Below, piece by piece: positions 2,926-41,136 of a stretch of 64,000 bases of DNA. The notes under the pieces were generated by a model. The model ran no database searches. It had not been told where the DNA came from and saw only the letters and a list, made by a program, of their open reading frames with translations. The DNA lies in the IMG/VR virus record IMGVR_UViG_3300033149_004104, positions 62,001 through 126,000 of that record. One strand, written 5' to 3'. The DNA comes from a virus. Positions within the stretch are counted from its first letter, which is position 1; every line of letters begins with the position of its first letter. Position numbers and translations under genes: made by a program.

Positions 2926-2933
2926 AAAATTTT

Positions 2934-2947: not shown

Positions 2948-3355
2948 ATGGCAATAAAAGACATTAAAGAAATAGATTATCCTCAAGTTTATGATCTAGA
3001 TTATAGGGGCGGGATAGACGCCCAAGGGTTTATAAGGGAAACTTGGGGCGATAGGGCTCTAGTAAATAGTCTTAAATTATGGATTTCTTCTTTTAAAGGG
3101 GATTTAATTAATAATCTCAATACGGGAGGAAGAGTTGTACAACATCTTCTAAAACCTATGCGTCAAGTGGATATACAAAATTTCAAGCAATCGATTCGTG
3201 ATGGCATAGCAATGGATTACGGCCCCACTTTAAAGATAAAGAAACTCGAAATAACACCCAATTATGAAGAAAGGGTGTTTGAAATTTATATGGAAGTTTA
3301 TTCAAAAGAATTAAAGTATGTTACAGGATTATATGAAAAAATAAAAGGAGTTTAA
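2948..3355 (+). CDS. Baseplate wedge protein, gp25-like
   Basis: 135 residues. The middle of the protein (WGDRALVNSLKLWISSF, GDLINN, GGRVVQHLLKP, then DYGPTLKIKKLEITPN) has the shape of the gp25/W family: a small alpha/beta fold whose members nucleate sheath assembly on the baseplate. It is followed by the gp6/J-like wedge gene, the usual partner in myophages. The start has no SD and sits at the end of an ACTAATAT motif. There is an 8-nt spacer to the next RBS. Confidence 0.7.
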   Translation: MAIKDIKEIDYPQVYDLDYRGGIDAQGFIRETWGDRALVNSLKLWISSFKGDLINNLNTGGRVVQHLLKPMRQVDIQNFKQSIRDGIAMDYGPTLKIKKLEITPNYEERVFEIYMEVYSKELKYVTGLYEKIKGV

Positions 3356-3359
3356 AAAA

Positions 3360-5255
3360 TTGGATTTTTCTTTTAATAGTATAAAAGATAGAATAATAAC
3401 AAGTTTAAGAAGTAAGTCCGAATGGGCAAATATACTTTATTTCTCCACCAATATGCGGCTTATTGAAGCAGTTGCAAAAGAGATTGAAGAGTTGGCTAGG
3501 TATGATGAATATTTAACTAGAGAAACAAAATGGGATTTAGCTAGAAACAAATCATCTTTAGTAACGCAAGCTGCAGTACTGGGATATAAACCTCATAGAA
3601 AAATAGGTGCTAGGCAAAAATTGTGGGTTAGTTCTAAAGAGAAAGCGTTTTCTCCTGAGTGGAATCAATATACGGTTTATGAAGCAGGAGATGTGGTACG
3701 CTATGGTGAACAAAATACACTGTATGAAGCGCTAGTAGATAATCAAGGAGTGGAACCTACTAACACTAATTACTGGAAAAAAACCACTGCCGTTCATTCT
3801 TCTGTTATAGGTATTCCTAAATACAGCATATTTAAAACAGAAAATGATATCTATTTTACATCAATGAGCTCGGTTGATTTGCTTACTACTGAGAACTATG
3901 CAGAAATTGATGTAGTACAGGGCATACCGAGAACATTTACAACTATTGCGCAAGGTTTAATTTATGAAGAAATAGAAATAGAAAATGATAGTATAGATAA
4001 CAGTTTCTATGAATTAAGAGTTAATAATGATCTTTGGACAGAATATAATGATATTAGACAGGCCGAAGCTGATGATAAAGCTTACCAAATATTAAATAAA
4101 TTAGATTTTACAGGAATTATTATTAGATTTGGAAATAATTTAACTGGGAAAAAATTAAGTGCAGGCGATACCATAACTTTTAAATATGTAGAAACTTTAG
4201 GGGAACTAGGTGATGCGTTATCTAAAGGTGTCGTAAATACTGTTGTCTCCACTCTAGTAGACAATAAGGGAGAAACTGTTGATGGATATTGTTATAACGA
4301 TGAAGTTATATCGGGCGGTAAGGATGTAGAGCATATAGAGGATATAAGAAGTAATGCAAAATATACGTTCCAGTCTGGTTATAATGTAGTAGGTAAAAAC
4401 GATTACAAAATATATCTATTAAATAATTTTGATTTTATACAAAAATGCGTTGTATGGGGAGCGTATGAACAGAACATTGATGATGGAAAAGACCCTTGGG
4501 ATTGGATCTCTACTCAAGAAAACCTTGTCTACATTTCAGCATTTACAACAGGAGAAACCCCTACTCAATTACAAAACAATCAAAAAGTGGAGATAATACA
4601 AGATATAAATGAAAAGAAGCCCCCTACTGATATTATTATTTTTAAAGATGTTGTATTCGTTAATATGATCTTTAACACAACAGCCTATTTATCAAGTACC
4701 ACCTATTTATTGTCAGAAACTAAAACACTCTTAGAGCAAGCTATCCAAGAGGAATACAATATTACAAATTTAGATTTTGAACAAAATATCTATGAAACAA
4801 ATTATAAAGCTTTTATCGATAATTTTGATGAAGTAAGGTATCATAATACAACTATACAATTTTATAATGTTGAAGACTTTACAAGTGGAGACTATAGTCA
4901 AGCAATTCCTTACGAAGCTAGCGCAACTGCTATTATGATTCCTGTAAAAACAAAATCGGTATACGTTTATATTAAAGACACTTCGGATGAAGATGCTACA
5001 TACGTTCATATAGGAACAGATAATGGTGGAGGGGGATTTAATCCAACAGAAGGATATGATTTAAGTGGAAGTACTATTAACTATAATACAGGAGCAATTC
5101 AAATAAAAGAGTCTTCAGGAATGAGTGGAGATTATTCTAAATATGAAATGAAAGTGGTATATAGCACATCGGAAGATGATTTAATTTTACAGGGCAGAAA
5201 TCATATTTTCTATTTAAGAGAAGTTAATGTTGAAACTCTTTATCTTACCGAATAG
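3360..5255 (+). CDS. Baseplate wedge protein, gp6/gpJ-like
   Basis: 631 residues starting at TTG, set by an AAGGAG 9 nt upstream. The N-terminus (TNMRLIEAVAKEIEELARYDEYLTRETKWDLARNKSS, residues about 25-60) matches the helical start of J-type baseplate proteins, which dimerise to form the inner wedge ring. It is longer than P2 J. The extra part at residues 85-140 contains a WNQYTVYEAGDVVRY-type insert, which resembles a small carbohydrate-binding (chitin-binding-like) module. The C-terminus is beta-rich. It is part of the + strand tail operon. Confidence 0.75.
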   Translation: MDFSFNSIKDRIITSLRSKSEWANILYFSTNMRLIEAVAKEIEELARYDEYLTRETKWDLARNKSSLVTQAAVLGYKPHRKIGARQKLWVSSKEKAFSPEWNQYTVYEAGDVVRYGEQNTLYEALVDNQGVEPTNTNYWKKTTAVHSSVIGIPKYSIFKTENDIYFTSMSSVDLLTTENYAEIDVVQGIPRTFTTIAQGLIYEEIEIENDSIDNSFYELRVNNDLWTEYNDIRQAEADDKAYQILNKLDFTGIIIRFGNNLTGKKLSAGDTITFKYVETLGELGDALSKGVVNTVVSTLVDNKGETVDGYCYNDEVISGGKDVEHIEDIRSNAKYTFQSGYNVVGKNDYKIYLLNNFDFIQKCVVWGAYEQNIDDGKDPWDWISTQENLVYISAFTTGETPTQLQNNQKVEIIQDINEKKPPTDIIIFKDVVFVNMIFNTTAYLSSTTYLLSETKTLLEQAIQEEYNITNLDFEQNIYETNYKAFIDNFDEVRYHNTTIQFYNVEDFTSGDYSQAIPYEASATAIMIPVKTKSVYVYIKDTSDEDATYVHIGTDNGGGGFNPTEGYDLSGSTINYNTGAIQIKESSGMSGDYSKYEMKVVYSTSEDDLILQGRNHIFYLREVNVETLYLTE

Positions 5256-29065: not shown

Positions 29066-29986
29066 TTAAACTAAGAAGTCAGGATATCCTCTGACAAAAC
29101 ATATTCTATCTAAACCAAATTCATCTATTATTTCCTGAAATCGCCTTCTAAAGGATACGCCACTTTTATACTTTGTGTATAGATCGCCTCCTCCGAAATC
29201 AAACCCTGATAAAAATATTTTGTCAAAACCTTCATACAATGCCTGTAAAATCCAAAAATACCCCGTATTACCTTTTCTATCATTATAGTAAAATACATTA
29301 TTCCCTCTTGTACTATATAAACTAAACTTTTTACTTTTATAATTTTGTATTTCTCTAAAAAGTTTCTTATCCAATACTCCAATACGAGTAAATGGCAAAT
29401 CTTCTTTATATGCATGGTTACACCCCCATAGCTCGCCTTTCCAATTTTGTATAAAAGAAATATCAGGCTCCTCTGTCCTGGTTACCCCGTTACCTAAAAT
29501 GAGCACCTTATTAGAGAAATCATTATATATGGTTTCCCCATACAATTTTACTTCTTCTTGTATAATTCCATCATAATCATTCTCTATAAAATATATATTA
29601 TCACTAAAATTAAAATCATGAGATAGCTTCTGTAAATCCCGTATCCAGTTAGCTTTATTCTTCTTTTCGTGATTGGTTCTTCCTAGGTTAATTCCGCAAA
29701 TATAGATATTCTTATATTCCTCGGTTAATGCATGATAAATGGCAAAAGAAAATAAATTGAGATTAGAACCATCCGTATTACATAATATATCAAAATTTTT
29801 ACCAAATTCTCTTTTATACTCCTGCGCTTTAAACAAGCCAAGATTATCTACAAATATTTTACTAAATTGAATTGATTTATCTAGAAAACGAAAATTGAAT
29901 CCCCATATTTCCTCTTTCCATTCTTTAACAAATTGTTTAGATTCTTTACATAGATTATCGTTGCCGAGAATTAGGATACTTTTCAT
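29066..29986 (-). CDS. GT42/DUF115-like putative glycosyltransferase, paralogue C
   Basis: 306 residues with two Rossmann-like halves. First half starts SILILGNDNLCKESKQFVKEW and is degenerate. Second half (about residue 170 on) reads KVLILGNGVTRTEE, GELWGCNHAYKE, FDKIFLSGFDFGGGDLY. These match the pattern of the GT42 sialyltransferases and DUF115 proteins (GNG near the N-end, CN..Y, then an (G)FD motif after a hydrophobic strand). Overlaps the upstream gene (ATGA). Third of three tandem paralogues. Activity inferred, not proved. Confidence 0.55.
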   Translation of the reverse strand: MKSILILGNDNLCKESKQFVKEWKEEIWGFNFRFLDKSIQFSKIFVDNLGLFKAQEYKREFGKNFDILCNTDGSNLNLFSFAIYHALTEEYKNIYICGINLGRTNHEKKNKANWIRDLQKLSHDFNFSDNIYFIENDYDGIIQEEVKLYGETIYNDFSNKVLILGNGVTRTEEPDISFIQNWKGELWGCNHAYKEDLPFTRIGVLDKKLFREIQNYKSKKFSLYSTRGNNVFYYNDRKGNTGYFWILQALYEGFDKIFLSGFDFGGGDLYTKYKSGVSFRRRFQEIIDEFGLDRICFVRGYPDFLV

Positions 29987-31140
29987 ATTAAAAAATCGGG
30001 CTGTTTTCCAATGAATGACATATTCTTAATCCCAAATTCTTTACTAACAGATAAAAACTGTTTTTTAAATAGCGCCCCATTTTGTTCACTGGAATTATAA
30101 ATATTTGAATTATCAAAATCAAATCCTCCTAAAACAATCTCTTCAAATTCTTCATAAATAGCCTGTAAAACAAGAAGAATTCCTGTACTCCAATTTCTCT
30201 GTTCTTTGAATAGAAAGACTCCCAATTGCTTATTTTCATATTCTTCAAATCCATCAAACTTTAAAGTAAATATATCATAATCATAATTATTGTTAAGCTT
30301 ATATTGAAGCGCCTTATCAACCATATATTTTTCTCTACAGCCAACTGCTTTAATAGTCCTTACATTTTCCACTTCTCTATATGCTTCATTACATACCCAT
30401 ATCCTATGTCGCCACTTATTTATAAATTTTTTAACTGATGGTTGTAGACGAGATTTGCCATTCCCCAATATTAAAACTTTTTCATTTAATACAATATGAG
30501 CGTTCTTATTATTTACCTCAAGATGATTTATCCCCTTTAAATACAATTTTGCATAATAATCTGAAGGCTCATCACTCATAATAAAAGGCTTATGATCCTT
30601 CCCTATAAATATTACTTTATCCAGTCCAAGCTCATCTCGTATAAGTCGCCAATTCCTTACCCATTTCTCCTTATTCTTTATATGATGATTTTGTACATAT
30701 ATATCTTTTCCACCTAGATCAAATCCAATTACATAAATTTTATCATATCCTTTTATTATAGCCCTTGCTACCAAGGTACTGCCAGAGTCTTTAATAAATA
30801 ATCCAGGAATATCAATCATTTCTACACCCGGAAGCGTTTTAGCTTTTGGATTTTTTCCAAATATGCGATATTTACCCCCGTATCTTTTTTTATATTCTAC
30901 AATTTCTTTTAATGCCGATATATCGCCAATTATTAAATCTAATCTTGGAAGCGAACCGTTATAGTATTCTAAATAAGCTGAATTACAGGCCCAAATTTCC
31001 CCGCTCCATTTTTGTATAAAATCCTGATGTTCTAATCTTGATATTCCATTTCCAACAATAAGCACTTCTTTTATTTTTTTTATAGAATTCTGGTGGCTGT
31101 TATTTAAATTTTTATTTTCAATAATTGAAGGATTTTTCAT
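29983..31140 (-). CDS. GT42/DUF115-like putative glycosyltransferase, paralogue B
   Basis: 385 residues. Two repeated halves: EVLIVGNGISRLEHQDF, GEIWACNSAYLE, DSGSTLVARAIIKGYDKIYV, IGFDLGGKDIY; then KVLILGNGKSRLQ, RIWVCNEAYRE, VLQAIYEEFEEIVLGGFDFDN. An insert between the halves follows FIGKDHKPFIMSDEP. Near-identical DNA to paralogue A occurs at its 5' end (31015-31055). Linked by ATGA overlaps on both sides. Confidence 0.6.
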   Translation of the reverse strand: MKNPSIIENKNLNNSHQNSIKKIKEVLIVGNGISRLEHQDFIQKWSGEIWACNSAYLEYYNGSLPRLDLIIGDISALKEIVEYKKRYGGKYRIFGKNPKAKTLPGVEMIDIPGLFIKDSGSTLVARAIIKGYDKIYVIGFDLGGKDIYVQNHHIKNKEKWVRNWRLIRDELGLDKVIFIGKDHKPFIMSDEPSDYYAKLYLKGINHLEVNNKNAHIVLNEKVLILGNGKSRLQPSVKKFINKWRHRIWVCNEAYREVENVRTIKAVGCREKYMVDKALQYKLNNNYDYDIFTLKFDGFEEYENKQLGVFLFKEQRNWSTGILLVLQAIYEEFEEIVLGGFDFDNSNIYNSSEQNGALFKKQFLSVSKEFGIKNMSFIGKQPDFLI

Positions 31141-32249
31141 GCTATATATTTTTCTCTATTTAAGAATTTTGGTTGCCCCTCAACAAATTTAATTTTATTT
31201 ACATTAAACCAGCATCTTATTAAATTCATCTGTTTTCTATACGTTAGCCCTTCTACCGCCCTGTTCTTATAGATATGATCTCCCCCAAAATCAAAACCAC
31301 TTAACCATATCATATCATACTCTTCATACAAAGCTTGTACTAAAAGAAGCATGCCCGTTTTAAAAGAATTAGTATAAAACAGCTTAACATCTTTGTTGAC
31401 TTTTTCTATAGTATAAACATCATAATCAAGATTATGCTTCTCTTTAAACTCAAGCATATCAAAAACTAAATGCGTAAACCTGGTTCCTACTCTATCAATT
31501 CTATTAAGATTATTATATTCTCTGTAATATGCATCATTACAAACCCATATTTCTTCTCTCCAATTTTTTATAAATCTTCTATTAAGAGAATTCTCTCTAC
31601 TTCTTCCATTTCCTAAAATAAGCACGTTATTAGTTCTTTTAACATTCTCTTCTTGATAACTTTTTACAGGATAATTAACAAAAAAGTTTTCTTTTAAATG
31701 ATCTTCTCCATTCATATATTTTCTAGCATAACTATTTATAGGCATCTCACTTAATATGAAAGGCTTATGATCTATTCCCACAAAATGAATTCTTTCTAAT
31801 CCAAACACCCTTGCTATTTTTCTCCAATTATCCACCCATTTACTTTTATTTCTTCTTTCATGATTTTTTACATATATATCTTTTCCGCCCAGATCAAATC
31901 CTACTAAAAATATCTTACCATAATTTTCATATAATGCCTTTACAACAAGCGTTGACCCGGAATCTTTAATATATCTTTCTGGAATTTCAACTTTTTTTAC
32001 TTCTGGTATACTTAATGCTTTTGTATTTTTACATAATAATTTATAATTTAATTTATATCTTTTTTTAGCTCTATAAGCTTCTTTTAATGCATCCTTATCT
32101 CCTATTAGAATATCTATTCTTGGAATTTTTTTATCAATCAGGTCTTTAAAAGCCCAATTGCAAGTCCAAATTTCTCCTTGCCATTTTTGTATAAAATCCT
32201 GATGTTCTAATCTTGATATTCCGTTACCTATAATAAGAACTTCTTTCAC
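31137..32249 (-). CDS. GT42/DUF115-like putative glycosyltransferase, paralogue A
   Basis: 370 residues, start GTG overlapping the NeuA-like stop (GTGA). Two halves as in paralogue B: EVLIIGNGISRLEHQ, GEIWTCNWAF, DSGSTLVVKALYENYGKIFL, VGFDLGGKDIY; then NVLILGNGRSRE, EIWVCNDAYYRE, MLLLVQALYEEYDMIWLSG, FDFGGDHIY. Its position straight after CMP-sugar synthesis supports use of a CMP-nonulosonate donor. Confidence 0.6.
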   Translation of the reverse strand: MKEVLIIGNGISRLEHQDFIQKWQGEIWTCNWAFKDLIDKKIPRIDILIGDKDALKEAYRAKKRYKLNYKLLCKNTKALSIPEVKKVEIPERYIKDSGSTLVVKALYENYGKIFLVGFDLGGKDIYVKNHERRNKSKWVDNWRKIARVFGLERIHFVGIDHKPFILSEMPINSYARKYMNGEDHLKENFFVNYPVKSYQEENVKRTNNVLILGNGRSRENSLNRRFIKNWREEIWVCNDAYYREYNNLNRIDRVGTRFTHLVFDMLEFKEKHNLDYDVYTIEKVNKDVKLFYTNSFKTGMLLLVQALYEEYDMIWLSGFDFGGDHIYKNRAVEGLTYRKQMNLIRCWFNVNKIKFVEGQPKFLNREKYIA

Positions 32250-32959
32250 TTAAATTTCTCCTTTAGCAATAATTCAACAATTCTAAAGTCCGTCTTTACA
32301 TCTATTTCAAAATGGGTATAATAGTCCATTATAAAAAGCCCAACCGGATCAGTTAACCTGTTTTTTGATTTAATAATATTACTAATCGTGTTTATATACA
32401 TAGCCCCGTTTTCCATATAAATGTTATTTTTGTAAAAACGCTTCTCTTGCCTTAAAGGCCTAGATTTAAAATCATAATTCAAGGGAATAGCCCGAGATTT
32501 TTGATATTTATGGGAAAAACTTTCAGTCCATAAAAACCTGTGATTTAGATCCGCTACTGATAACATTGAATTGTATGACCCCTTTTCATATTCATCAATC
32601 ATTTTATTAACATCCTTATAATTAAGCAAAGGATTAGTAGCTTGGACAAGTATAAAAACGTCTTCATTATTTTCGTATCCTTTTCCCAAATACTCCAATA
32701 TAGCATCCTCGGTTGTTGAATTATCTTGTGCATTTTTATGTTCCCTATCATAAAAGATAATTTTATTAAATTGAAATTTTTTTATTATTAATTTATATTC
32801 TTCCGAATCGATTGCAACTATTATTTTATTAACTTTACTTTGCTGTAGAGCACTTAAAACCCAATATACTAGAGGTCTATGATTAATCTTTTTTATATTC
32901 TTATCTTTTATTCCTTTACTGCCACTTCTTATAGGAACAAACGATATTATATTATTCAT
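32246..32959 (-). CDS. neuA: CMP-nonulosonic acid (sialic acid) cytidylyltransferase, NeuA-like
   Basis: 237 residues. Motifs: VPIRSGSKGIKDKNIKKI (residues 8-25, CTP-binding), VAIDSEEY, ILVQATNPLL (Q-T-N-P-L where cellular enzymes have Q-T-S-P-L), NGAMYI, and HFEIDVKTDFRI (the metal-binding Asp). The family joins CTP to sialic, pseudaminic or legionaminic acid to make the CMP-activated donor. The exact sugar cannot be told. It leads a coupled run of three putative transferases and lacks an SD; its ATG belongs to an ACTAATATTATATG motif. Confidence 0.8.
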   Translation of the reverse strand: MNNIISFVPIRSGSKGIKDKNIKKINHRPLVYWVLSALQQSKVNKIIVAIDSEEYKLIIKKFQFNKIIFYDREHKNAQDNSTTEDAILEYLGKGYENNEDVFILVQATNPLLNYKDVNKMIDEYEKGSYNSMLSVADLNHRFLWTESFSHKYQKSRAIPLNYDFKSRPLRQEKRFYKNNIYMENGAMYINTISNIIKSKNRLTDPVGLFIMDYYTHFEIDVKTDFRIVELLLKEKFK

Positions 32960-32970
32960 ATAATATTAGT
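32957..32970 (-). promoter_or_regulatory. ACTAATATTATATG promoter-like motif including the NeuA start
   Basis: Exactly the same 14 bases as the start of the endopeptidase gene at 17268-17281, ending in the start codon. No SD upstream. Confidence 0.5.
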
Positions 32971-32973
32971 CAC

Positions 32974-33576
32974 TTAAAAAATATAATCAAATCTTTCTAA
33001 ATCATCAGCATATAAAGTACTAACTATATCAACAGATTTTTTATCGTAATATTCTTTATAATTTTTTCTTCGTGGCGCTCCGAAACTTTTATTAATCTGT
33101 TTAGGCTGTGGTATTCCTATTAAATCAAATATGTGGCGTATTTCTTTTTCAAAGTTTTCAAATCTTGCAATATAATCATAATTTTTACTACCTTTAGGAA
33201 TTGCAAACCAACGTAACTGCGGTACATAGTGTATTTTATGTAAAGACTCTTTTAATTGAGTTTGAATAAAATCGTTAAAATCTTTTTTTATAGCACTAAA
33301 TACTTTATTGTCATTTAAATCTTTTTGAGAAAGTGAACCTCTGTTTGCCCGTGACCAATACGAAACAAGTCTATCAAAAGGATTTCTTACAATAGTAAAC
33401 GTAAAGTATTTATCCCATTTTTTGGGGTACGCTTGTATGTATCGAATTGGGAAGGCATGTCTCCCACCTACTTCTTTTGGATTTATGACCATATTTTCAT
33501 CAAATAATGCATTTATCGTATGCCCTCCAGTACGAGGAATACTTACAAAAATCGTCTTGTACTTATCACTTACCAT
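32974..33576 (-). CDS. Sulfotransferase-like protein
   Basis: 200 residues from ATG 33576, which lies 4 nt after the stop of the truncated glycosyltransferase frame. PAPS-binding signature KTIFVSIPRTGGHTINALF (residues 6-24) and FTIVRNPFDRLVSYWSRAN (about 60-78) with the Arg and Ser of the 3'-phosphate loop. Similar to the Sulfotransfer_2 group that sulfates sugars. A longer frame could reach back to 33711, overlapping the upstream remnant. Acceptor not predictable. Confidence 0.7.
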   Translation of the reverse strand: MVSDKYKTIFVSIPRTGGHTINALFDENMVINPKEVGGRHAFPIRYIQAYPKKWDKYFTFTIVRNPFDRLVSYWSRANRGSLSQKDLNDNKVFSAIKKDFNDFIQTQLKESLHKIHYVPQLRWFAIPKGSKNYDYIARFENFEKEIRHIFDLIGIPQPKQINKSFGAPRRKNYKEYYDKKSVDIVSTLYADDLERFDYIF

Positions 33577-33580
33577 ATTA

Positions 33581-33781
33581 TTATACTCTCGTTGTTTGTA
33601 ATATGAAGAACCCATGCCCATTAGGCCAGCTTTTATAATTATCTTTATATCTACACCCTTGTACACCCCCCCAAGAAATATCATCCCAAAAGATAAATAT
33701 CTTATCCACATAATCAGTTATCGAATTTATAGACTGCTGGACAAAATCTTCCCCATAAAGACATCTATATATTGCTATCAA
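33581..33781 (-). pseudogene. Truncated glycosyltransferase N-terminus with G7 run
   Basis: 66 codons from TTG. The start MIAIYRCLYGEDFVQQSINS then YVDKIFIFWDDISWG resembles the N-terminal strand-helix-strand of GT-A glycosyltransferases ending in the ligand-binding DD. It is then lost. A run of seven G (33666-33672) sits at the end of the conserved part; a one-base change there would put the frame into that of the sulfotransferase. Either a decaying gene, a phase-variable tract, or a sequencing error. Confidence 0.5.
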
Positions 33782-34469
33782 AATTCTTAATAAACTCCTT
33801 TAATTTTTCAGCATCCCGTATTCTTTCCCATTCTTTCTCTCTATATAATGCTTTTACTTTATCTCGTTTTCTTCTCGCCCTTTGATCTCTATATGTGTCA
33901 TCCAACTCTGACTTACCCACACTGAAATGTAAATGCTCTATATACAGATCAGGTATATATACAAGCCTATCTATTCTTTTTGCTAAATCAGTAAGCCAAG
34001 TATCGTTATAATCTGCACTAAAGTAGGGAGGTACAAAATATCCTACTGTTTCTATCCAATTTTTATGAATAAAGCCATGGGTTCCTAACTCCCCACTATC
34101 TACAATTCCATCTCTACCGTATACGAATAAAATTTTATCAGGATATTTTTCAAATTCGCTTTTAACAATTCTATCCCATTCTTTTGTTTTATAAACAAGA
34201 TCATCTCCTGCATGATGATAAATAGGACCTGTTGCTTTTCTGTAGCATTCATTCCACATATTACTAAGTACAATCCTTTCACCAATAATGAATTTTATAT
34301 TATAATTTTTTTGCAATTCTAGTGCTTTATCTCTTGATCTTTTATCGTCATTATCAATATAAAAAACAATTTCAACACTATTAGAATCCTCTGCTTTAGA
34401 AAATGCTGAATTGCATAATCTTTCCATTCCTGACGGTCTGTTTCTTGTTGGCACTAGTAAACTAATCAA
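33765..34469 (-). CDS. GT2-type (GT-A) glycosyltransferase
   Basis: 234 residues from TTG, SD AGGAGAG. Motifs: ISLLVPTRNRPSGMERLCNS (start), IVFYIDNDDKR, GPIYHHAGDDLVYKT (DxD-like pair) and SADYNDTWLTDLAKR with acidic residues in the place of the ED catalytic base. This is a family 2-like sugar transferase. Acceptor and donor unknown. Overlaps the truncated frame downstream by 17 nt. Confidence 0.7.
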   Translation of the reverse strand: MISLLVPTRNRPSGMERLCNSAFSKAEDSNSVEIVFYIDNDDKRSRDKALELQKNYNIKFIIGERIVLSNMWNECYRKATGPIYHHAGDDLVYKTKEWDRIVKSEFEKYPDKILFVYGRDGIVDSGELGTHGFIHKNWIETVGYFVPPYFSADYNDTWLTDLAKRIDRLVYIPDLYIEHLHFSVGKSELDDTYRDQRARRKRDKVKALYREKEWERIRDAEKLKEFIKNFDSNI

Positions 34470-34473
34470 CTTT

Positions 34474-35049
34474 TTACTCTCCTATTCTAATTATTTCCAC
34501 TCCGGGCTGATCTTTTATATATCTCCAGGGGTCAAGAATACAAGAGCCTTTTGGAAAAGAATATGTTCCAAATTCTTTATGTCTTGTTCCAATAAAATAG
34601 ATAGCTGGCTCTTGTAATGGAGGGGGACTTTTATCAATATACGGATCATACATTTGAGCATCTATATCTTTTTCCCTTAGTATATTCTTTAAAAGGATAG
34701 CGGGGCTACCAACTTCTAAATTAGTCTGTTCTTTAAACGCTTTTCCTAAAATAATTACGGGCAAATCCAACTGCTCTTTCTTTTCTTTTACTAATTCTGC
34801 CAACCATTCAGTTTGTTTTTCTCTGCAAAGCATAATATTTTCAAACCAATCGTACGAAAGATTAAGTTTTCTAGAAAGCCATGAAAGAGCTATATTATCA
34901 CGGGGATGACAATTATGCGAAACAATATTAGATTTTTTCTCTATCCAAAATAAATCATCATTATTCTGATGATTTGGAAATAACTCTAAATTATACACAT
35001 CCCCTTCATAATATAATGTTTCAATTTTTTTAATATTCTTTTTTTTCAT
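34474..35049 (-). CDS. Nucleotide-sugar dehydrogenase, C-half: split-intein C fragment plus C-extein
   Basis: 191 residues with its own RBS (AGGAGTG, 7 nt before ATG). Residues 1-46 are an intein C-terminal fragment (see 34912-35049). Residues 47-191 are the C-extein: CHPRDNIALSWLSRKLNLSY, the catalytic-Cys helix of UDP-glucose/UDP-ManNAc dehydrogenases, then LPVIILGKAFKEQTNLEVGS and YDPYID, the C-terminal UDP-binding domain. It cannot work alone since the NAD domain is encoded in the next gene upstream (35080-36207). Trans-splicing would give a protein of 268+145=413 residues, a normal length for this family. Confidence 0.85.
   Translation of the reverse strand: MKKKNIKKIETLYYEGDVYNLELFPNHQNNDDLFWIEKKSNIVSHNCHPRDNIALSWLSRKLNLSYDWFENIMLCREKQTEWLAELVKEKKEQLDLPVIILGKAFKEQTNLEVGSPAILLKNILREKDIDAQMYDPYIDKSPPPLQEPAIYFIGTRHKEFGTYSFPKGSCILDPWRYIKDQPGVEIIRIGE
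34912..35049 (-). other. Split intein, C-terminal fragment (46 aa)
   Basis: Starts MKKKNIKKIETLYYEGDVYN and ends IEKKSNIVSHN, followed by Cys. This has block F (EGDVYNLELF, then DDLFWI) and block G: penultimate His45, terminal Asn46 and a +1 Cys (34909-34911). Basic N-terminus suits electrostatic pairing with the acidic-to-mixed N fragment. Size and layout match other naturally split inteins. Confidence 0.85.
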
Positions 35050-35079
35050 ATTTTAACACTCCTATTAGCTAATCTTCTT

Positions 35080-36207
35080 TTAATTTCTATTATCATAATA
35101 TAATTTATCCGTTTGTTTTACTTTATCTGCTCGAATAATTTCCATTTTACCATTCCTAAATACAGGAATTAAATGATCCTCAGTACAAATAAATTCTTCA
35201 TCCTGAACAGAGAATTTATACAATTTGCCTTTATATTTTCTTTTAGTTACGTCTTTTATTAATTTTTCTTCTTTTTCAGAACAATCGCTATTAATAGATT
35301 CTATAAAAAATTTTTTATTTTCTGATGAGTGGAAAATCTCATAGAAATCCCCTATAGTAAATATTTCATTATTAACTTTTATTTTTGAATCATATAAAAC
35401 ACATCCTCCACCATCTCCCATTCCGCCCCTCATATATTTATTTGATATAATTCTATCAGTTGCAAGTGAAAGAGCCCTAGTTACTTCATCTACATTTGTA
35501 TTTGGAGTCTTATGACATATCTCCATAACGGTATTCATCATAACTATTTTTGTCGATATCGCAGTGTTATAAACCACTTTTATAAGCTCTGCATTTTCTA
35601 TTGTTGTTTCAAATACAGGACGATCATGTAAAGTTTTATAAAAAAGTTTTACTGTTTCTTTCGCTGCAAAACTATCAGTTCCTAATAATACAAACTCGGG
35701 GTTCATAAAATCGGGTATTGTGGTTCCCATAGCTATAAAGAAAGGATTATAACATAGATCTATATAAGGAGACATAAACGGACGAATTTCTCTTTCAATA
35801 GTCCCTGGTAACACTGTTGAAATAATAACCACAATTTTATGTCTTTTTATTTTATTTAATTCCTCTGAAAGTTGTATTACTGATTCTTTTAAGTAACTAT
35901 AGTCAAAATCTTTTCTTTCATCCGGTAATCTTGTAATTCCTTCATATTTTTCAGCATGAGGCGTTTGTACAGCAATAAAAATTATATCAGAACGCCCCGC
36001 TACATCCTTAATTGGTAATATCTTGATATTACTATTATCGAGTAGCTCTTGAGCCCCCTCTTCTCTATATGGAATTTTTTTATCTTTTATAATTTCTTTA
36101 ACTTTCTCGGAAGGATCATATCCCACTACTGAATGGCGCCCAAATTTTTCTATTGCTAAAGCGCAAGGTAGCCCCAACTTTCCAAGACCTAAAAATCCTA
36201 TATTCAT
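35080..36207 (-). CDS. Nucleotide-sugar dehydrogenase, N-half: N-extein plus split-intein N fragment
   Basis: 375 residues. Residues 1-268 are the NAD-binding and central domains of the UDP-glucose/GDP-mannose dehydrogenase family: MNIGFLGLGKLGLPCALAIE, IIFIAVQTPHAEK, ISTVLPGT, YNPFFIAMGTT, AELIKVVYNTAISTKI and MRGGMGDGGG. Residue 269 is Cys and the last 107 residues are an intein N fragment (35083-35403). The missing C-terminal domain is in the next gene, 30 nt on. The reaction would be two-step oxidation of a UDP-sugar to its uronic acid. Start overlaps the GT-B stop (ATGA). Confidence 0.85.
   Translation of the reverse strand: MNIGFLGLGKLGLPCALAIEKFGRHSVVGYDPSEKVKEIIKDKKIPYREEGAQELLDNSNIKILPIKDVAGRSDIIFIAVQTPHAEKYEGITRLPDERKDFDYSYLKESVIQLSEELNKIKRHKIVVIISTVLPGTIEREIRPFMSPYIDLCYNPFFIAMGTTIPDFMNPEFVLLGTDSFAAKETVKLFYKTLHDRPVFETTIENAELIKVVYNTAISTKIVMMNTVMEICHKTPNTNVDEVTRALSLATDRIISNKYMRGGMGDGGGCVLYDSKIKVNNEIFTIGDFYEIFHSSENKKFFIESINSDCSEKEEKLIKDVTKRKYKGKLYKFSVQDEEFICTEDHLIPVFRNGKMEIIRADKVKQTDKLYYDNRN
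35083..35403 (-). other. Split intein, N-terminal fragment (107 aa)
   Basis: Block A begins CVLYDSKIKVNNEIFTIGDF with Cys1 (TGT at 35401-35403). Block B is EEFICTEDHLIPV with the TxxH pair Thr74 and His77. It ends KTQTDKL-like, specifically VKQTDKLYYDNRN then TAA, the site where natural split inteins break. No homing endonuclease is present between the fragments. Confidence 0.85.
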
Positions 36208-37205
36208 TTGAAAACTCCTTCGTATATTCTTAAATAATCATTCAATATTTTTTCATTATTCCAATGCTTCTCCATAAATTCTCTTGAATCCCGCTGAAGT
36301 TTCTTTAACAAACTTCTATTTTCATTTAACTCTGTAATTGTAGTAGCTAAAGAGTGCTTATCTGCCAGCACCCAGGGCAATTCATACAATTCGCACTTTA
36401 AGAACTCGGTAAGGTATTGAATCATCCAGTCTTTTAAGTTACACATAACTACTTTCCCTTGTGATAGCCCCTCCAATGATGATAAATGATAGCTGCCAGT
36501 ATAAATATCGTCAATATGAATATCACCTGAGGCTCGTCTTTTTAAACACTCATCAAATCGTTCTCCGTAGATAATATCTTTTTCTATAATACCTTTACTT
36601 TCTAATTCATTTAATATAGCAGAAACCTCGCTATAACTTTTATAAGCCCATGTGGATTTCCTCTTTTTTTTAAGTTTTTCCAACGGCTCCTTATTAGATG
36701 GGCTATAAGTAACTTTTATTCTTTCATTATTAACTTCCTTGTATTGAAGCAAAGGGTCGCATATATCAACAACATTACGCACTGGATAAAAATCATCTTT
36801 AAGTAAAGACTTCAATCTTACCGCTTGATACTGTGCAATACAAGCTATTCTGTCTATTCTTACCCATTTCTTAATAACATTAAACATTTCATTAATTACT
36901 TTCTCAGGCTCACCGTGCATCTGGTACACAAACGGTTTATTAATATTGCTTAGCATTTGCCATCCCTTGCTATTTTTATGTAAAGGAGGCTGATTATGAA
37001 TGTGTATAATATCTGCCCAGTTAAGATATTCTTTAAATTGTTTTAAATCTTCTTTACCTTTACCCCATACAACATCTGGTATTATTTTCATACTACTTAA
37101 TCGAGATTGAATGCACTTTGATTCTATCCCATTTTTATTTAAAAAATTACTTAACCTAACCGGCGCTCCTGCTAATGGTGATCTACAAAGATGCAATATT
37201 TTCAT
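36204..37205 (-). CDS. GT-B fold glycosyltransferase (GT4-like)
   Basis: 333 residues. N-terminus MKILHLCRSPLAGAPVRLSN with a second Gly-rich loop pattern for GT-B, WADIIHIHNQPPLH (a classical GT4 motif), and in the C-domain GSYHLSSLEGLSQGKVVMC, equivalent to the donor-binding E-x7-E region. It ends FMEKHWNNEKI as many GT4 proteins do. Overlaps the upstream gene by 23 nt and the dehydrogenase by 4 nt. Confidence 0.75.
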   Translation of the reverse strand: MKILHLCRSPLAGAPVRLSNFLNKNGIESKCIQSRLSSMKIIPDVVWGKGKEDLKQFKEYLNWADIIHIHNQPPLHKNSKGWQMLSNINKPFVYQMHGEPEKVINEMFNVIKKWVRIDRIACIAQYQAVRLKSLLKDDFYPVRNVVDICDPLLQYKEVNNERIKVTYSPSNKEPLEKLKKKRKSTWAYKSYSEVSAILNELESKGIIEKDIIYGERFDECLKRRASGDIHIDDIYTGSYHLSSLEGLSQGKVVMCNLKDWMIQYLTEFLKCELYELPWVLADKHSLATTITELNENRSLLKKLQRDSREFMEKHWNNEKILNDYLRIYEGVFK

Positions 37206-37962
37206 CTAGTAGAAACTCCTCATCGTTAAACAATTTAAAGACAACATCATTATAATATTTGTCTTTCATTAAATGTAAGTTTTTCCAACTATTGAGATAA
37301 TCCTTTCTTGAGAACGATAGTTTTCCAACTTTCTTTTTATGCTCGATACTCTTAGCGTATTGCGCACTCTCTTCAGCACTTTCAATATAACTCCCATCAA
37401 ATCCAACATAATATATTTCTTTATATCCCATATACGCTGTAAGAAAATAAAACGCTCCCACTACCGAACCTTGTGCCTGTACAATTATATTATCTTTATA
37501 TTCGGTATTGAAGCTCCCCTTCCGGATATCATTATCATCAATATTATTTGATTTAAAAAAATATATGTTCTTCAGATTCTTTATCTTTTCATAAAGTGAC
37601 ATAATTATTTCTATATCTAATGGGCTATCATTTCTTTTTTCCTTTTTCTCAATATGAAATGAAAAGATAGCATGCGGTAGTAATACATATTGAGCTAAAT
37701 GTAATTTATCTACATTTCTTCTAAGTCCTTGATAATGAAAATTAACAGCATACTGAACACTCTTACTAGCTGTAAAGATAGATATAGCATCAGTAAGTGT
37801 ACAAATATCATACTGCCTTTGCCCTTCCAGTTTCTTAATATTCAGCGTATCTATAGAAGGGCCGGAGCCAATAAGTAAAGCCTTGTTATTTCGAGGCTTC
37901 CTCGGTACTTTTTCTAAAGTAGGCAGAAAAGGCTCTCTTAAGTCATCGACTGTTGTTATCAT
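37183..37962 (-). CDS. GT42/DUF115-like putative sialyltransferase
   Basis: 259 residues. NKALLIGSGPSIDTLNIKKL (residues 28-47), then YDICTLTDAIS, IVQAQGSVVGAFYFLTAYMG and YKEIYYVGFDGSYIES. The G-(N/S)-G-P-S loop, the Q/S-G-V segment and the GFD motif match the GT42 (CST) sialyltransferases and the DUF115 group. Sialyltransferases of this type use CMP-sialic acid, which NeuA/NeuB in this cassette would provide. Overlaps neighbours by 4 and 23 nt. Confidence 0.6.
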   Translation of the reverse strand: MITTVDDLREPFLPTLEKVPRKPRNNKALLIGSGPSIDTLNIKKLEGQRQYDICTLTDAISIFTASKSVQYAVNFHYQGLRRNVDKLHLAQYVLLPHAIFSFHIEKKEKRNDSPLDIEIIMSLYEKIKNLKNIYFFKSNNIDDNDIRKGSFNTEYKDNIIVQAQGSVVGAFYFLTAYMGYKEIYYVGFDGSYIESAEESAQYAKSIEHKKKVGKLSFSRKDYLNSWKNLHLMKDKYYNDVVFKLFNDEEFLLDENIASL

Positions 37963-38699
37963 TTCTTCTTACCTGCTCTTCTTAATCGTGCCTCATAATT
38001 ATAATAATCGGGGTGTTCTATGATTTTTTTTACAATATTATAAATAAAATCATGAGTTTTTATCTTTCCTTTTTGTAGTAATTGCCACATATACTTAGCA
38101 TTAGAATATTGATCATGTGGATCAACACGACCCCGATTTTTTATGTTTGCTTTATCACGAATTTTCTTAGGCAGATAGTCTGGAAAATATTCTCTATAAT
38201 CGTTGGGAATAAATAAATCAGGTTTCATATAATAAAAGTCTATTCCAGTAAACCAAAGTTCTTTTGGATTATATTGTAAAAAATGTTCCATGATAATAGG
38301 GCCGTACAGTACGCCTTTTATTTTTTTGCTAAGTTTTGCTATTGTATCAGCAAGCGTAAATGTAGGAATGGTTTTAGAGTATTTATCAATAAGATTCCTC
38401 TGATTTGTTTTCATTCCTAATAATTTCACCCCATATTTATCTCTCCATGTTTTTAAATACCCCGCCGGTTGCATTTCACGATTAAATTGTACATTCATAC
38501 AAAGTATATCGCATCTCTTACCATAATTCTCCACATAAGCAACTTTATCTAAAAGAAAAATAGCGCCGTTTGTTCTTATTACGCAATCGAAACTGTCTAT
38601 TTCTTTACCGAGATATTTCCCTTGTAATATCGGAGACGGGCCAACAAATATTACTCGTTTCTCTTCTACCTGCTGCTGTAATAACTTTTCTACGTTCAA
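37959..38699 (-). CDS. GT29-like sialyltransferase
   Basis: 246 residues from TTG (overlap TTGA). Residues 17-47 read VIFVGPSPILQGKYLGKEID then SFDCVIRTNGA, the sialylmotif L of GT29 (family pattern VGNGG..LG..ID..D.VIR.N.A). A second region GVLYGPIIMEHFL then WFTGIDFYY fits sialylmotif S, and the VDPHDQYSNAKYM segment has the His of the VS motif. GT29 enzymes are known mainly in eukaryotes and some bacteria and viruses. Donor would be CMP-sialic acid. Confidence 0.7.
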   Translation of the reverse strand: MNVEKLLQQQVEEKRVIFVGPSPILQGKYLGKEIDSFDCVIRTNGAIFLLDKVAYVENYGKRCDILCMNVQFNREMQPAGYLKTWRDKYGVKLLGMKTNQRNLIDKYSKTIPTFTLADTIAKLSKKIKGVLYGPIIMEHFLQYNPKELWFTGIDFYYMKPDLFIPNDYREYFPDYLPKKIRDKANIKNRGRVDPHDQYSNAKYMWQLLQKGKIKTHDFIYNIVKKIIEHPDYYNYEARLRRAGKKK

Positions 38700-39247
38700 T
38701 ATTTCTTCCTTATAACACAGGATGTATCTTTAAATATTTCATCTGGAAATTTAAGTACTTCATTAAAAGCCTTTCTGACTCCTGGATGATGCTTACTATT
38801 ACTATAATCATGTAGCGCCAGGAAGCCATTTATTTTTAATTTTGGCCACCATAAGCCAATATCTTCCTTTACATTAAGAAAATTATGATTAGCATCGATA
38901 TAAATAAACATTAAAGAGTTATTTTGAAACATTTTACAAGCTTCTTTACTTGTTGTTTTTATTTTATAAATATTAGAATACTTTTTACAAAGTTCATCAA
39001 ATTGCTTTTCTACTATTTCCATAGGATATTTATATGAAGAAGCGTCATTTTTATCATATCCGTTTTTCCAAGCATCAATCGCTATAACCTGATCAAAATT
39101 TTTTGCAAATATTTCTGTACTATCTCCTACGTAAGAGCCTATTTCTACAACTTTGGCAATAGTAGGATCTATTCGCTTTACATAAGCACATAAATCTTGA
39201 AGTCCCGATTTTGCATTTCTAGCTTTTCGTATACTAATTTTTTCCAT
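38696..39247 (-). CDS. Class I methyltransferase-like protein
   Basis: 183 residues from the ATG at 39247, chosen because GGAGAT lies 6 nt before it and it overlaps the upstream TAA (TAATG). KVVEIGSYVGDSTEIFAKNF is the SAM-binding motif I, VIAIDAW motif II, then LMFIYIDANHNF and NGFLALHDY, typical of the Methyltransf_24 group. Likely methylates a sugar within the cassette. Substrate unknown. Confidence 0.7.
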   Translation of the reverse strand: MEKISIRKARNAKSGLQDLCAYVKRIDPTIAKVVEIGSYVGDSTEIFAKNFDQVIAIDAWKNGYDKNDASSYKYPMEIVEKQFDELCKKYSNIYKIKTTSKEACKMFQNNSLMFIYIDANHNFLNVKEDIGLWWPKLKINGFLALHDYSNSKHHPGVRKAFNEVLKFPDEIFKDTSCVIRKKY

Positions 39248-40026
39248 TATATCTCCATACGATAATAATACATCCAAAGTTCTTCTAATTCATCATACCC
39301 TTTATTTAATTTATCCCTAGGGGATTTATCCCAAGGCTTTTGACTTACAAAGTGAAGTAGTCTTACTTTTTCGTTAGTTATTCTATACAATAAATCTCTA
39401 TTTCTACTAAAGAAAATTTTATGTTTCTTACCTTTCCACATTCTCTTCTCACAATTATATTCTTTCGGAAGAATGTGAATCATCTTTTTAAAGTATTTAT
39501 TAATAGCTTTTTGATCCGGCATTGAAAATCCCCGCCTTGAAAACTGTAAAATATTTTTATACAGCTTAAAGTCTAGATAGGGTTTATTTACAACAATGAC
39601 GCCAGTATTTATTCCGCTTCGTAGATTATCGCTTCCTGATCCATAAGCCTGCACTCCCGCCAATCTTGCTCCACATCGAAAAAGTGGATTTAAATCTCCT
39701 AATGCAATAGTATCCATATCGATAAAAACAACTCTATCACAATCAGTATAAGAAAAAATATCAAGTTTGTAATACGTATTTTTTAAACAATCGTCTGTTA
39801 TTGACATATTAATGTGTTTATAATTTTCAAATCTTGGTTTTACAAACTCTACATTATCATGTAATAAAGAAGCCATATAACCTTTATTTGAATTAGAAAG
39901 CCCCATATCAATAAATCGCCATTTATAATTTAATATTTTGGGACTATTTTTTACCACCGATTTATAAAAAGCAATAAAGCCGGGCATAAACGCATTATCT
40001 ATCATTGACAGTAGAATAATTTTCAC
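39247..40026 (-). CDS. GT8-like glycosyltransferase
   Basis: 259 residues from GTG. DxD motif VVFIDMDTIALG (Asp103, Asp105), GINTGVIVVNKPYLDF (residues 138-153), PDQKAINKYF and RLLHFVSQKPWDKSP with the C-terminal His motif. This is the glycogenin/LgtC layout of family 8, retaining transferases using UDP-hexose. SD GAAGAG. Follows a small conserved protein by 2 nt. Confidence 0.75.
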   Translation of the reverse strand: MKIILLSMIDNAFMPGFIAFYKSVVKNSPKILNYKWRFIDMGLSNSNKGYMASLLHDNVEFVKPRFENYKHINMSITDDCLKNTYYKLDIFSYTDCDRVVFIDMDTIALGDLNPLFRCGARLAGVQAYGSGSDNLRSGINTGVIVVNKPYLDFKLYKNILQFSRRGFSMPDQKAINKYFKKMIHILPKEYNCEKRMWKGKKHKIFFSRNRDLLYRITNEKVRLLHFVSQKPWDKSPRDKLNKGYDELEELWMYYYRMEI

Positions 40027-40028
40027 TC

Positions 40029-40280
40029 TTATATCTCTTCGTATGTCCTATTAAATATATCGATTTTACAGGGATAGAACTCTCCATTTACTCCTTGTAT
40101 TACATAATTTCCTTTTTCACATTTCATGTCCCCCTCTAACGTTTTTATAACTAAGGCATTACTTGACTCCACAGATAAATGACAATGAGATTTACAAAGT
40201 TTTTTTATCTCATCCAAATTATTTCCATCCCATCTTATTGCTTTCACAATGATTGGCTTCTTTCTGAATTCTTTCCACAC
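40029..40280 (-). CDS. Small conserved phage protein (PGDY/GEFYPCK type)
   Basis: 83 residues, GTG start with GGAGG 8 nt upstream. Ends IKTLEGDMKCEKGNYVIQGV and GEFYPCKIDIFNRTYEEI. This pattern (IKTLEGDM..GDYIIKGV.GEFYPCK.DIF..TYE) is widespread among phages of many hosts, with unknown function. Its presence inside the sugar cassette may be accidental. Confidence 0.75.
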   Translation of the reverse strand: MWKEFRKKPIIVKAIRWDGNNLDEIKKLCKSHCHLSVESSNALVIKTLEGDMKCEKGNYVIQGVNGEFYPCKIDIFNRTYEEI

Positions 40281-40281
40281 T

Positions 40282-41136
40282 TTAATTACCTCCGATCCTT
40301 AAATTCTTTTTCTTCTCTTCTTCTCCTGGATATAATACTCTTGGCCCGTATCCTTTGGATAACCCCCTCTCAATATCTCTTACTCCTTTAACAAGCTCAA
40401 ATAAACCATTAGGTTCAACTGAAGCTGCTTGATCACTACCCCACAGATTATGATTCAACGTTATATGCTTTTCTATCCATGTAACTCCATACGCAAGCAC
40501 TGCAAATGCATCTTTAATTCCGTAATAATGAGAGCTATAACCGATTTCTTTTCGAGGATACTTTTCTTTCAACCATTTTACATACTGTAAATATAAATCA
40601 TCAATAGAAGTAGGATACACACTATTTGTATGCATAATAACATGAGGATCTAATATATTAACAGCTTTTTCTATTTCCTCCTCAGTACTCATGCCCGTCG
40701 ACATTATCCTATAATCAAATAAATCTCTACATAATTCAAGAAGTGCGTCGTTGGTAATAAGAGCAGATGGAATCTTTACAATATCCACAAATTTCTTCAT
40801 GAAATAAGCGCTGTCTAAATCCCAAACCGATGCAAACCAGCCTATTCCACAACTAAAACAATAATTATCAATTTCAGCATAATTGTCTTCATTAAATTCA
40901 ATATCTTTTTTATATTGCAAATATGTAATAGGCTTTTGTCTCCAAGGTACAATTTTTTCTTTATTTTTCTTATCTTCAGGAACGCAGATATCCGGATTTC
41001 TTTTCTGGAACTTTACATAATTACAATCTGCAGCACTAGCAATTGTAATAAGTTTTCTAGCACTTTTAATAAACTCTAACTTATCATTTCCAAAGAATGC
41101 ATTTAAGCCAATCTCAGCTATTATCTTAACTTCCAT
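40282..41136 (-). CDS. neuB: Nonulosonic (sialic) acid synthase, NeuB-like, without SAF domain
   Basis: 284 residues, SD GGAG. Motifs: VKIIAEIGLNAFFGND (start), DCNYVKFQKR (KFQ), ADIV-like FVDIVKIPSALITND, MSTGMSTEEEIEKA, IMHTNSVYPTSIDDLYL, EIGYSSHYYG, WIEKHITLNHNLWGSDQAAS. This is the PEP-condensing TIM barrel that makes sialic, pseudaminic or legionaminic acid. Known NeuB proteins have a further C-terminal SAF (antifreeze-like) domain of about 60 residues that helps shape the active site; it is missing here. The other precursor enzyme (2-epimerase) is not in the window. Confidence 0.8.
   Translation of the reverse strand: MEVKIIAEIGLNAFFGNDKLEFIKSARKLITIASAADCNYVKFQKRNPDICVPEDKKNKEKIVPWRQKPITYLQYKKDIEFNEDNYAEIDNYCFSCGIGWFASVWDLDSAYFMKKFVDIVKIPSALITNDALLELCRDLFDYRIMSTGMSTEEEIEKAVNILDPHVIMHTNSVYPTSIDDLYLQYVKWLKEKYPRKEIGYSSHYYGIKDAFAVLAYGVTWIEKHITLNHNLWGSDQAASVEPNGLFELVKGVRDIERGLSKGYGPRVLYPGEEEKKKNLRIGGN

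What the first reader, a model, noticed from the sequence alone, without database searches (positions are those of the whole stretch)
34474..36207. Nucleotide-sugar dehydrogenase gene split by a natural trans-splicing intein
The 375-residue gene has a dehydrogenase N-terminal two-thirds ending in a 107-residue intein N fragment (block A Cys1; block B TEDH with Thr74 and His77). The next gene, 30 nt away with its own SD, opens with a 46-residue intein C fragment ending SHN and followed by Cys, then the rest of the enzyme. No endonuclease lies between them. Spliced length would be 413 residues, normal for this family. Phage split inteins are known in replication and nucleotide genes such as gp41, NrdJ and IMPDH; in a sugar enzyme of a glycan cassette it seems new to me.
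Basis: partly seen in the sequence, partly recalled or inferred. Interest (0 to 1): 0.9.

Follow-up and report, generated by a model that had tools for sequence, protein, structure and literature searches.

The report
Phage sugar-enzyme gene with split intein
A phage makes a sugar-processing enzyme as two separate proteins, each carrying half of a self-splicing 'intein' that most likely joins them exactly at the enzyme's catalytic cysteine; many related phage sequences share the arrangement, so it looks like a mobile family, but splicing itself has not been tested.

Summary
Window 36207-35080 (-) encodes 268 residues of a nucleotide-sugar dehydrogenase plus a 107-aa intein N-fragment; 35049-34474 (-) encodes a 46-aa intein C-fragment plus the remaining 145 residues. 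Profiles built without the window lineage find the fragments at 112 and 65 bits; five shuffled windows give at most 10. The joined 413-aa extein aligns over 411-413 residues with 11 uninterrupted phage homologues. A read-through model folds as an intein; its best PDB match is a split intein. Cys+1 is the enzyme's catalytic cysteine. It is not a single case: 57 IMG/VR contigs (three of them the window's own phage type) carry both halves, 50 with an endonuclease-like gene between. Two loci share a 99-100% identical intein-endonuclease-intein cassette within 72-78% identical exteins, as recent homing predicts. Remnants in other loci suggest, without proving, that the window allele lost its endonuclease. 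Contiguous inteins in this enzyme are published (PMC4071816). I found no report of a split one, but the key paper (Dassa 2009) was not readable. Trans-splicing is inferred, not shown. Verdict: real; new member of a known kind.

The parts
35404..36207 (-). N-extein: residues 1-268 of the nucleotide-sugar dehydrogenase (NAD-binding and most of the central domain), ending GMGDGGG
   Evidence: PF03721 82.1 bits and PF00984 49.0 bits, both over cut-off; TIGR03026 147.2 bits over 1-274, below its cut-off of 189.8; aligns to uninterrupted homologues
35083..35403 (-). Intein N-fragment (IntN), 107 aa, Cys1, block B T74-E-D-H77; stop codon follows at 35082-35080
   Evidence: TIGR01445 30.6 bits, over cut-off; family profile without the window 112.3 bits
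35050..35079 (-). 30-nt gap after the N-half stop, in frame, with three more in-frame stops and Shine-Dalgarno TAGGAG. A 16-codon ORF (MIIEIKRRLANRSVKI) begins in the end of the N-half, crosses the gap and ends ATGA on the C-half start, as the endonuclease genes of several relatives do: possible endonuclease vestige
   Evidence: sequence, start-site context, comparison of gap ends
34912..35049 (-). Intein C-fragment (IntC), 46 aa, ATG start, ends S-H45-N46
   Evidence: family profile without the window 64.7 bits; alignment with nine relatives
34474..34911 (-). C-extein: 145 residues beginning with Cys+1 (CHPRDN), which would be the catalytic cysteine after splicing; stop included
   Evidence: TIGR03026 29.5 bits over 47-140, below cut-off; alignment to uninterrupted homologues resumes exactly at this Cys

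Best explanation
The two genes encode the halves of one phage nucleotide-sugar (UDP-glucose-type) dehydrogenase, each carrying a fragment of a natural, canonically split class 1 intein. IntN (107 aa) and IntC (46 aa) associate and fold into one Hint domain. The Gly268-Cys1 bond rearranges to a thioester, Cys+1 takes over the acyl group, Asn46 cyclises with help of His45, and the exteins are left joined by a normal bond as GGG-CHPRDN. Cys+1 becomes the active-site cysteine, so the enzyme should be dead before splicing and scarless after it. The locus belongs to a phage family, probably mobile, in which a free-standing endonuclease gene normally sits between the halves; the window allele most likely descends from such a form by loss of the endonuclease. 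Shown by computation: sequence family, predicted fold, junctions, selection and mobility signature in relatives. Inferred: that splicing happens, that the enzyme is active, that the endonuclease was lost in this lineage.
For: Family profiles 112 and 65 bits against at most 11.7 (real ORFs) and 10.0 (shuffles). TIGR01445 over cut-off. The joined extein aligns over 411-413 of 413 residues to 11 of 11 uninterrupted loci examined, 47-60% identity (proteins read). AF2 model of the read-through intein (pLDDT 79.7, pTM 0.76): the top 30 PDB matches are inteins or intein-like domains, best Aes123 PolB1 split intein E 3.5e-11, NrdJ-1 E 2.5e-8, gp41-1 E 1.9e-6. Cys1 in 23 of 23 representatives and block B T..H in 22 of 23. 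H-N and C+1 also in 23 of 23, but 17 of these were found by a search for HNC, so only the window and L014, L203, L218, L227, L228 are free of that choice. dN/dS 0.04-0.18 in the six IntN or IntC comparisons with unsaturated dS. Cassette 99-100% identical within exteins 72-78% identical, L022 against L033. An endonuclease remnant in the L203 gap and a C-terminal one in L353; endonuclease end codons kept in L042 and L051.
Against: No splicing or enzyme activity is measured. Pfam Intein_splicing stays under its cut-off. The window lineage is a single sequence type, so selection was measured in relatives, not in it. The structure models contain an artificial linker made from read-through stops. 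The intein tree is weakly resolved (9 of 19 inner branches open), and its nearest relatives by that tree (L218, L227, L228) do not have the endonuclease end that the window gap resembles, so loss of an endonuclease here is not proven. One relative (L048) lacks the block B His.
Confidence: 0.93

Rival explanations
1. Decayed intein: the gene was broken by stops inside a contiguous mini-intein, splicing is lost, and the dehydrogenase is a pseudogene.
For: The two halves are in the same frame, as expected from stops arising in a once contiguous gene. A contiguous mini-intein at the same site exists (L064).
Against: A good Shine-Dalgarno and ATG precede the C-half. The window's junction residues are intact. 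Split relatives show low dN/dS. 54 further contigs outside the window's own type keep a two-gene form with both halves.
Confidence: 0.04
2. The two genes are separately made proteins that associate without splicing (genes in pieces), with the intein fragments acting only as a docking pair.
For: Enzymes split by an endonuclease insertion that still work are cited in print (title of Friedrich 2007 in the reference list shown; not read).
Against: The break falls exactly at the catalytic cysteine with intein junctions, and uninterrupted homologues resume at exactly that residue. Block B and Cys1 have no reason to persist in a mere dock.
Confidence: 0.02
3. Assembly or sequencing error split one gene.
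For: Metagenomic contig.
Against: Four in-frame stops and an own ribosome-binding site; identical in three other contigs; the same arrangement in divergent loci.
Confidence: 0.01

Closest known systems
Fractured genes with split inteins and a free-standing endonuclease (Dassa et al. 2009; only the citation was seen; content recalled, paper not held)
   Same: Enzyme gene broken in two by a split intein; in most relatives of the window an endonuclease-like gene lies between the halves
   Different: Host gene is a nucleotide-sugar dehydrogenase, whereas that paper, as I recall it, deals with DNA-synthesis and repair enzymes; the window allele has no endonuclease
Aes123 PolB1 split intein (PDB 9hth)
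   Same: Best fold match and second-best profile match
   Different: Polymerase host gene; cysteine-less (title), whereas the window has Cys1 and Cys+1
NrdJ-1 and gp41-1 split inteins (PDB 8ubs, 6qaz)
   Same: Same fold
   Different: Weak sequence relation (NrdJ-1 E 0.0031, gp41-1 not among the 9 profile matches); other host genes
'udp' intein of cellular UDP-glucose 6-dehydrogenase (PMC4071816, passages)
   Same: Same host enzyme; in 89 one-ORF cellular loci a contiguous intein sits at the same cysteine, GGx|C(F/L)PKD; the split IntN profile matches 81 of these 89 at E<=1e-3 in that small set
   Different: One polypeptide, 78 of 89 inteins 322-495 aa long, room for an internal endonuclease; best identity to the window IntN 29.5% by E-value order. 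That the published 'udp' intein uses this very cysteine was not checked in the paper

Membership tests
Natural split intein, class 1 | IntN with nucleophile at position 1 and block B T..H | tested here: met
   Cys1, T74-E-D-H77; TIGR01445 over cut-off
Natural split intein, class 1 | IntC ending His-Asn followed by Cys, Ser or Thr | tested here: met
   SHN then Cys in the window
Natural split intein, class 1 | Two separate ORFs with own translation starts | tested here: met
   Four in-frame stops, Shine-Dalgarno and ATG
Natural split intein, class 1 | Hint fold when the fragments are together | tested here: met
   AF2 model with a read-through linker; inteins are the best PDB matches
Natural split intein, class 1 | Pfam Intein_splicing score over its curated cut-off | tested here: not met
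   21.2 and 22.8 bits against 35.8. The contiguous inteins of L064 and L014 also stay below it (18.0 and 34.4), so the model seems insensitive to this family; it is a detection threshold, not a biochemical feature
Natural split intein, class 1 | Ligation of the exteins in trans | not testable with these tools
   needs co-expression
Fractured gene (split intein plus free-standing endonuclease) | Endonuclease gene between the halves | tested here: not met
   30-nt gap in the window. An endonuclease-like ORF is present in 36 of 42 and 15 of 17 contigs with both halves; two contigs are in both lists, one of them with the ORF
Nucleotide-sugar (UDP-glucose/GDP-mannose) dehydrogenase | NAD-binding and central domains | tested here: met
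   PF03721 82.1, PF00984 49.0 bits, both over cut-off; PHROG 9148 UDP-glucose dehydrogenase E 5e-60
Nucleotide-sugar (UDP-glucose/GDP-mannose) dehydrogenase | UDP-binding C-terminal domain | tested here: inconclusive
   PF03720 23.9 bits against 30; PDB matches of the read-through model are dehydrogenases of this family
Nucleotide-sugar (UDP-glucose/GDP-mannose) dehydrogenase | TIGR03026 over cut-off | tested here: not met
   172.8 against 189.8 for the read-through protein, which still holds the intein; the joined extein was not scanned
Nucleotide-sugar (UDP-glucose/GDP-mannose) dehydrogenase | Catalytic Cys in a GGxC-x-P-(K/R)-D motif | tested here: met
   GGG|CHPRDN forms only across the splice junction; the role of this Cys is recalled
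Nucleotide-sugar (UDP-glucose/GDP-mannose) dehydrogenase | Oxidation of a nucleotide sugar with NAD | not testable with these tools
   substrate unknown

The most novel reading that the evidence does not exclude
A phage-wide family of mobile split inteins is specialised on the catalytic cysteine of nucleotide-sugar dehydrogenases; the whole IntN-endonuclease-IntC cassette homes as a unit, and after the endonuclease decays the split is kept because trans-splicing gates when the sugar enzyme, and so the phage's glycan modification, becomes active.
Probability: 0.12. Interest if true: 0.8.

Novelty: new member of a known kind. Interest (0 to 1): 0.6.

Why it matters
Natural split inteins are valued ligation tools, and how they arise is open. 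PMC12707363 (passages) says they are believed to come from contiguous ones and that, if so, the age of the split should correlate inversely with aggregation of the N-fragment. This insertion site offers a comparative series: empty gene, contiguous intein with LAGLIDADG match, contiguous mini-intein, split intein with intact endonuclease gene, with a decaying one, and without. It also puts a split intein in a metabolic sugar enzyme at its catalytic residue, where splicing and enzyme activity could be read out together, and it supplies more than 20 distinct untested intein pairs.

Tried and rejected
Rejected: an assembly error (identical in three contigs; four stops). A recoded genetic code, because window ORFs are long under table 11. 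A hidden endonuclease between the halves, because the gap is 30 nt.

Led nowhere or limited: the IntN alignment A1 was not conserved enough for a collection scan, so IntC alignment A2 was used. Alignment A3 placed IntC on IntN, perhaps through the internal symmetry of the Hint fold; it was discarded for A4 and A5 with extein anchors. The PDB search with the IntC profile was uninformative: ubiquitins lead, the KlbA intein is third at E 0.0035. Foldseek of the whole read-through precursor showed only dehydrogenases in the 50 rows listed. The intein tree does not resolve the place of the window. The IntN of L022 and the IntC of L027 had no match at E<=0.01 in 50,697 GenBank phage records; P0001 and P0002 matched 27 and 6 records there, and some P0001 matches run into IntN columns, but I did not open those records. 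The genome-contig scan stopped at 120 rows, as did the scan for uninterrupted alleles, so those are lower bounds.

Rows set aside: three large contiguous inteins (L028, L039, L047) are not in the table and are counted apart. L048 is not in the extein tree because its N-extein is cut by the contig end. Of 120 cellular loci, 89 show one ORF with standard junctions; the other 31 were not counted: four without a dehydrogenase match that look like chance (L068, L127, L176, L181), three frame-broken (L129, L166, L178), L152 unresolved, the rest truncated or with variant junctions. The comparison used eight endonuclease ends of the LGIKL/LNIKV type and left out the differing ones (L026, L200, L218, L227, L228, L031).

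Full report
OBSERVATION. The window is bases 62001-126000 of a 135,563-base IMG/VR virus record. Two consecutive minus-strand genes match the finding exactly. The first, 36207-35080, is 375 aa: 268 residues of a nucleotide-sugar dehydrogenase ending GMGDGGG, then 107 residues beginning with Cys and holding TEDH at 74-77. The second, 35049-34474, is 191 aa: 46 residues ending SHN, then CHPRDN and the rest of the enzyme. Between them are 30 nt with a Shine-Dalgarno TAGGAG. The two genes are in one frame, but four stops separate them. The locus is 100% identical over 5,734 nt in three further IMG/VR contigs, which probably sample the same phage.

CHANCE CONTROL. TIGR01445 (intein N-terminal region) scores 30.6 bits, over its cut-off of 24.5; Pfam Intein_splicing stays below its cut-off. 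Profiles built from 20 other loci, window lineage left out, score 112.3 bits on the N-half and 64.7 on the C-half among 1,604 window ORFs. The next value is 11.7 (IntC profile on the N-half) and the best in five shuffled windows 10.0. A PDB search with the IntN profile (which includes the window) returns the M. jannaschii KlbA intein (6e-10), a polymerase intein, entry 9hth (1.2e-7), and NrdJ-1 (0.0031). The same search with the IntC profile is uninformative: ubiquitins lead and KlbA is third at 0.0035.

JUNCTIONS AND FOLD. The joined 413-aa extein aligns over 411-413 residues to 11 of 11 uninterrupted phage homologues examined (L005-L009, L013, L015-L019) at 47-60% identity, and in the alignment with six of them the gap closes exactly at GGG|C. 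An AF2 model of the intein with short extein anchors and a read-through linker (pLDDT 79.7, pTM 0.76) matches inteins: Aes123 PolB1 split intein (9hth) E 3.5e-11, KlbA 2.2e-9, NrdJ-1 2.5e-8, gp41-1 1.9e-6. The whole read-through precursor (pLDDT 81.0, pTM 0.68) matches dehydrogenases of the UDP-glucose dehydrogenase family.

A FAMILY, NOT A SINGLETON. A scan of viral contigs for the DNA of HNCHPRDN gave 45 stretches on 45 contigs, a scan with the IntC alignment added four contigs, and a scan for HNC(F/L)PKDxxA gave 26 stretches, two on contigs already seen: 73 contigs in all. On 57 the two halves are separate genes on one contig: 42 and 17, two shared. Three of the 57 are the window's own type. 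On ten, one ORF spans both parts: L064 (mini-intein), the L014/L028 contig, L039, L047 (intein 351 aa in L014 and 368 in L047; LAGLIDADG match tested and found for L014), and L350, L354, L355, L356, L363, L374. On six the N-half was not seen in the fetched stretch (L024, L049, L061, L357, L361, L373). The contigs are not all independent: the 43 with both parts fall into 23 sequence groups, one of them a truncated copy (L034). So among alleles with this motif the occupied state (45) is the minority.

ENDONUCLEASE. On 50 of the 57 an ORF of 239-295 aa fills the gap: 36 of 42 and 15 of 17, one shared. Thirty of the 36 form one blastp family with L022's, and all 15 of the second set match it. Only two were scanned against libraries. 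L022's scores 29.0 bits against the 29.1 cut-off of Phage_endo_I and matches endonuclease PHROGs. L031's, which stands for the other six (identical), matches a homing-endonuclease PHROG and begins GIY-YIG-like (my reading). Seven have no intact ORF: the three window-type contigs (30 nt), L042 (16 nt), L051 (21 nt), L203 (195 nt) and L353 (300 nt). L203's gap encodes 73 residues of the endonuclease C-terminus at 70% identity. L353's holds a C-terminal piece (E 2.5e-7) and a doubtful N-terminal one (E 0.06). L042 and L051 keep endonuclease-like last codons, LGIKL-stop, overlapping the C-half ATG as in several intact loci. In the window the same frame reads RLANRSVKI-stop; 0.025-0.3% of shuffles are as similar to eight chosen intact ends. 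This supports loss of an endonuclease in the window lineage. But it is nine codons that also carry the ribosome-binding site, I chose the comparison after seeing the pattern, and intact loci with other ends (among them L218, L227 and L228, the window's neighbours in the intein tree) were left out.

MOBILITY AND SELECTION. L022 and L033 share IntN (100%), gap with endonuclease (98.9%) and IntC (100%) at DNA level, while their exteins are 78% and 72% identical. L027 and L056 show the same contrast more weakly (89-95% against 73-76%). This is what recent homing of the entire cassette predicts. Of seven pairs tested, six IntN or IntC comparisons in four pairs have unsaturated dS and give dN/dS 0.04-0.18; some of these have dS of 1.5 or more and are rough. 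In the extein tree the window sits with seven uninterrupted alleles and L014 (84/85), and intein states are patchy (10 changes, least possible 5). The intein tree places it near L218, L203, L227 and L228 (89/96, not starred).

MECHANISM. Cys1 holds in 23 of 23 representatives and block B T..H in 22 of 23, L048 having Q. Terminal HN and C+1 also hold in 23 of 23, but 17 of these were found by searching for HNC, so that count is partly built in; the window, L014, L203, L218, L227 and L228 are free of it. This fits class 1 splicing in trans (mechanism from general knowledge). Because C+1 is the dehydrogenase's catalytic cysteine (general knowledge of the family), neither half should be active alone. 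Neighbouring genes include matches to NeuB, a cytidylyltransferase, a sulfotransferase, glycosyltransferases and a methyltransferase, so the enzyme plausibly supplies an oxidised sugar nucleotide for a glycan (inference).

WHAT IS KNOWN. An intein in UDP-glucose 6-dehydrogenase is published (PMC4071816, passages). In genome contigs a scan stopped at 120 loci; 89 show a one-ORF intein at the same cysteine. Their IntN regions match the phage profile in 81 of 89 at E<=1e-3 and their IntC in 15 of 89, E-values being for that small set. The phage split intein may share ancestry with them, though general intein similarity could also explain it. I saw no cellular locus with the short-IntC two-gene form among the 120, but three are frame-broken, one (L152) is unresolved and others are truncated. 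Literature searches for a split form: 'split intein' with 'UDP-glucose dehydrogenase' 0 papers, with 'nucleotide sugar' 2 unrelated by title; 'intein' with 'UGDH' 0, with 'UDP-glucose 6-dehydrogenase' 2, one of them PMC4071816, with 'UDP-glucose dehydrogenase' 3. In passages of these three (PMC3322345, PMC8528832, PMC7019647) the inteins are in other genes. PMC7090010, PMC11766414 and PMC12707363 do not contain 'dehydrogenase' in their main text (term search). Dassa et al. 2009 and Carvajal-Vallejos et al. 2012 are not held; my memory that the former covers DNA-synthesis and repair enzymes is recalled, not checked. No GenBank phage record matched the IntN of L022 or the IntC of L027.

VERDICT. 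A real natural split intein, probably functional, in a widespread and probably mobile phage family at the catalytic cysteine of nucleotide-sugar dehydrogenases. The kind (split intein, fractured gene) is known; the host enzyme, the size of the family and the visible decay series appear new within the searches named.

Noticed in passing
L043, ORF at 2505-4637 of the reverse complement (also L046): The N-half of this relative seems to carry a second, contiguous intein at another site (FYN|C...QGN|T), so one dehydrogenase gene is hit by two inteins.
   Followed up: partly
L203, L218, L227, L228 and most split loci of L349-L373: In a second subfamily the C-half has only about 50 extein residues, so these phage dehydrogenases seem to lack the UDP-binding C-terminal domain (joined extein 286-315 aa in the first four).
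   Followed up: no
L048 block B (TSDQ): The block B histidine is replaced by Gln while the junction residues are intact; splicing competence is doubtful.
   Followed up: no
window 32246-41136 (-): Phage glycan cassette with NeuB, a cytidylyltransferase, a weak GT29 (sialyltransferase) match, a sulfotransferase and glycosyltransferases: a possible nonulosonic acid pathway in a phage.
   Followed up: partly
window 29066-32249 (-): Neighbouring genes of 385 and 370 aa share motifs (GNGISRLEHQDFIQKW, GFDLGGKDIYV) and a 306-aa one resembles them more loosely; they look like duplicates. The 370-aa one has no Pfam match.
   Followed up: no
L218 contig (297,710 b) and L044 contig (230,059 b): These large phages carry five (four over cut-off) and three matches to the intein N-terminal model, so several genes seem intein-bearing.
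   Followed up: no
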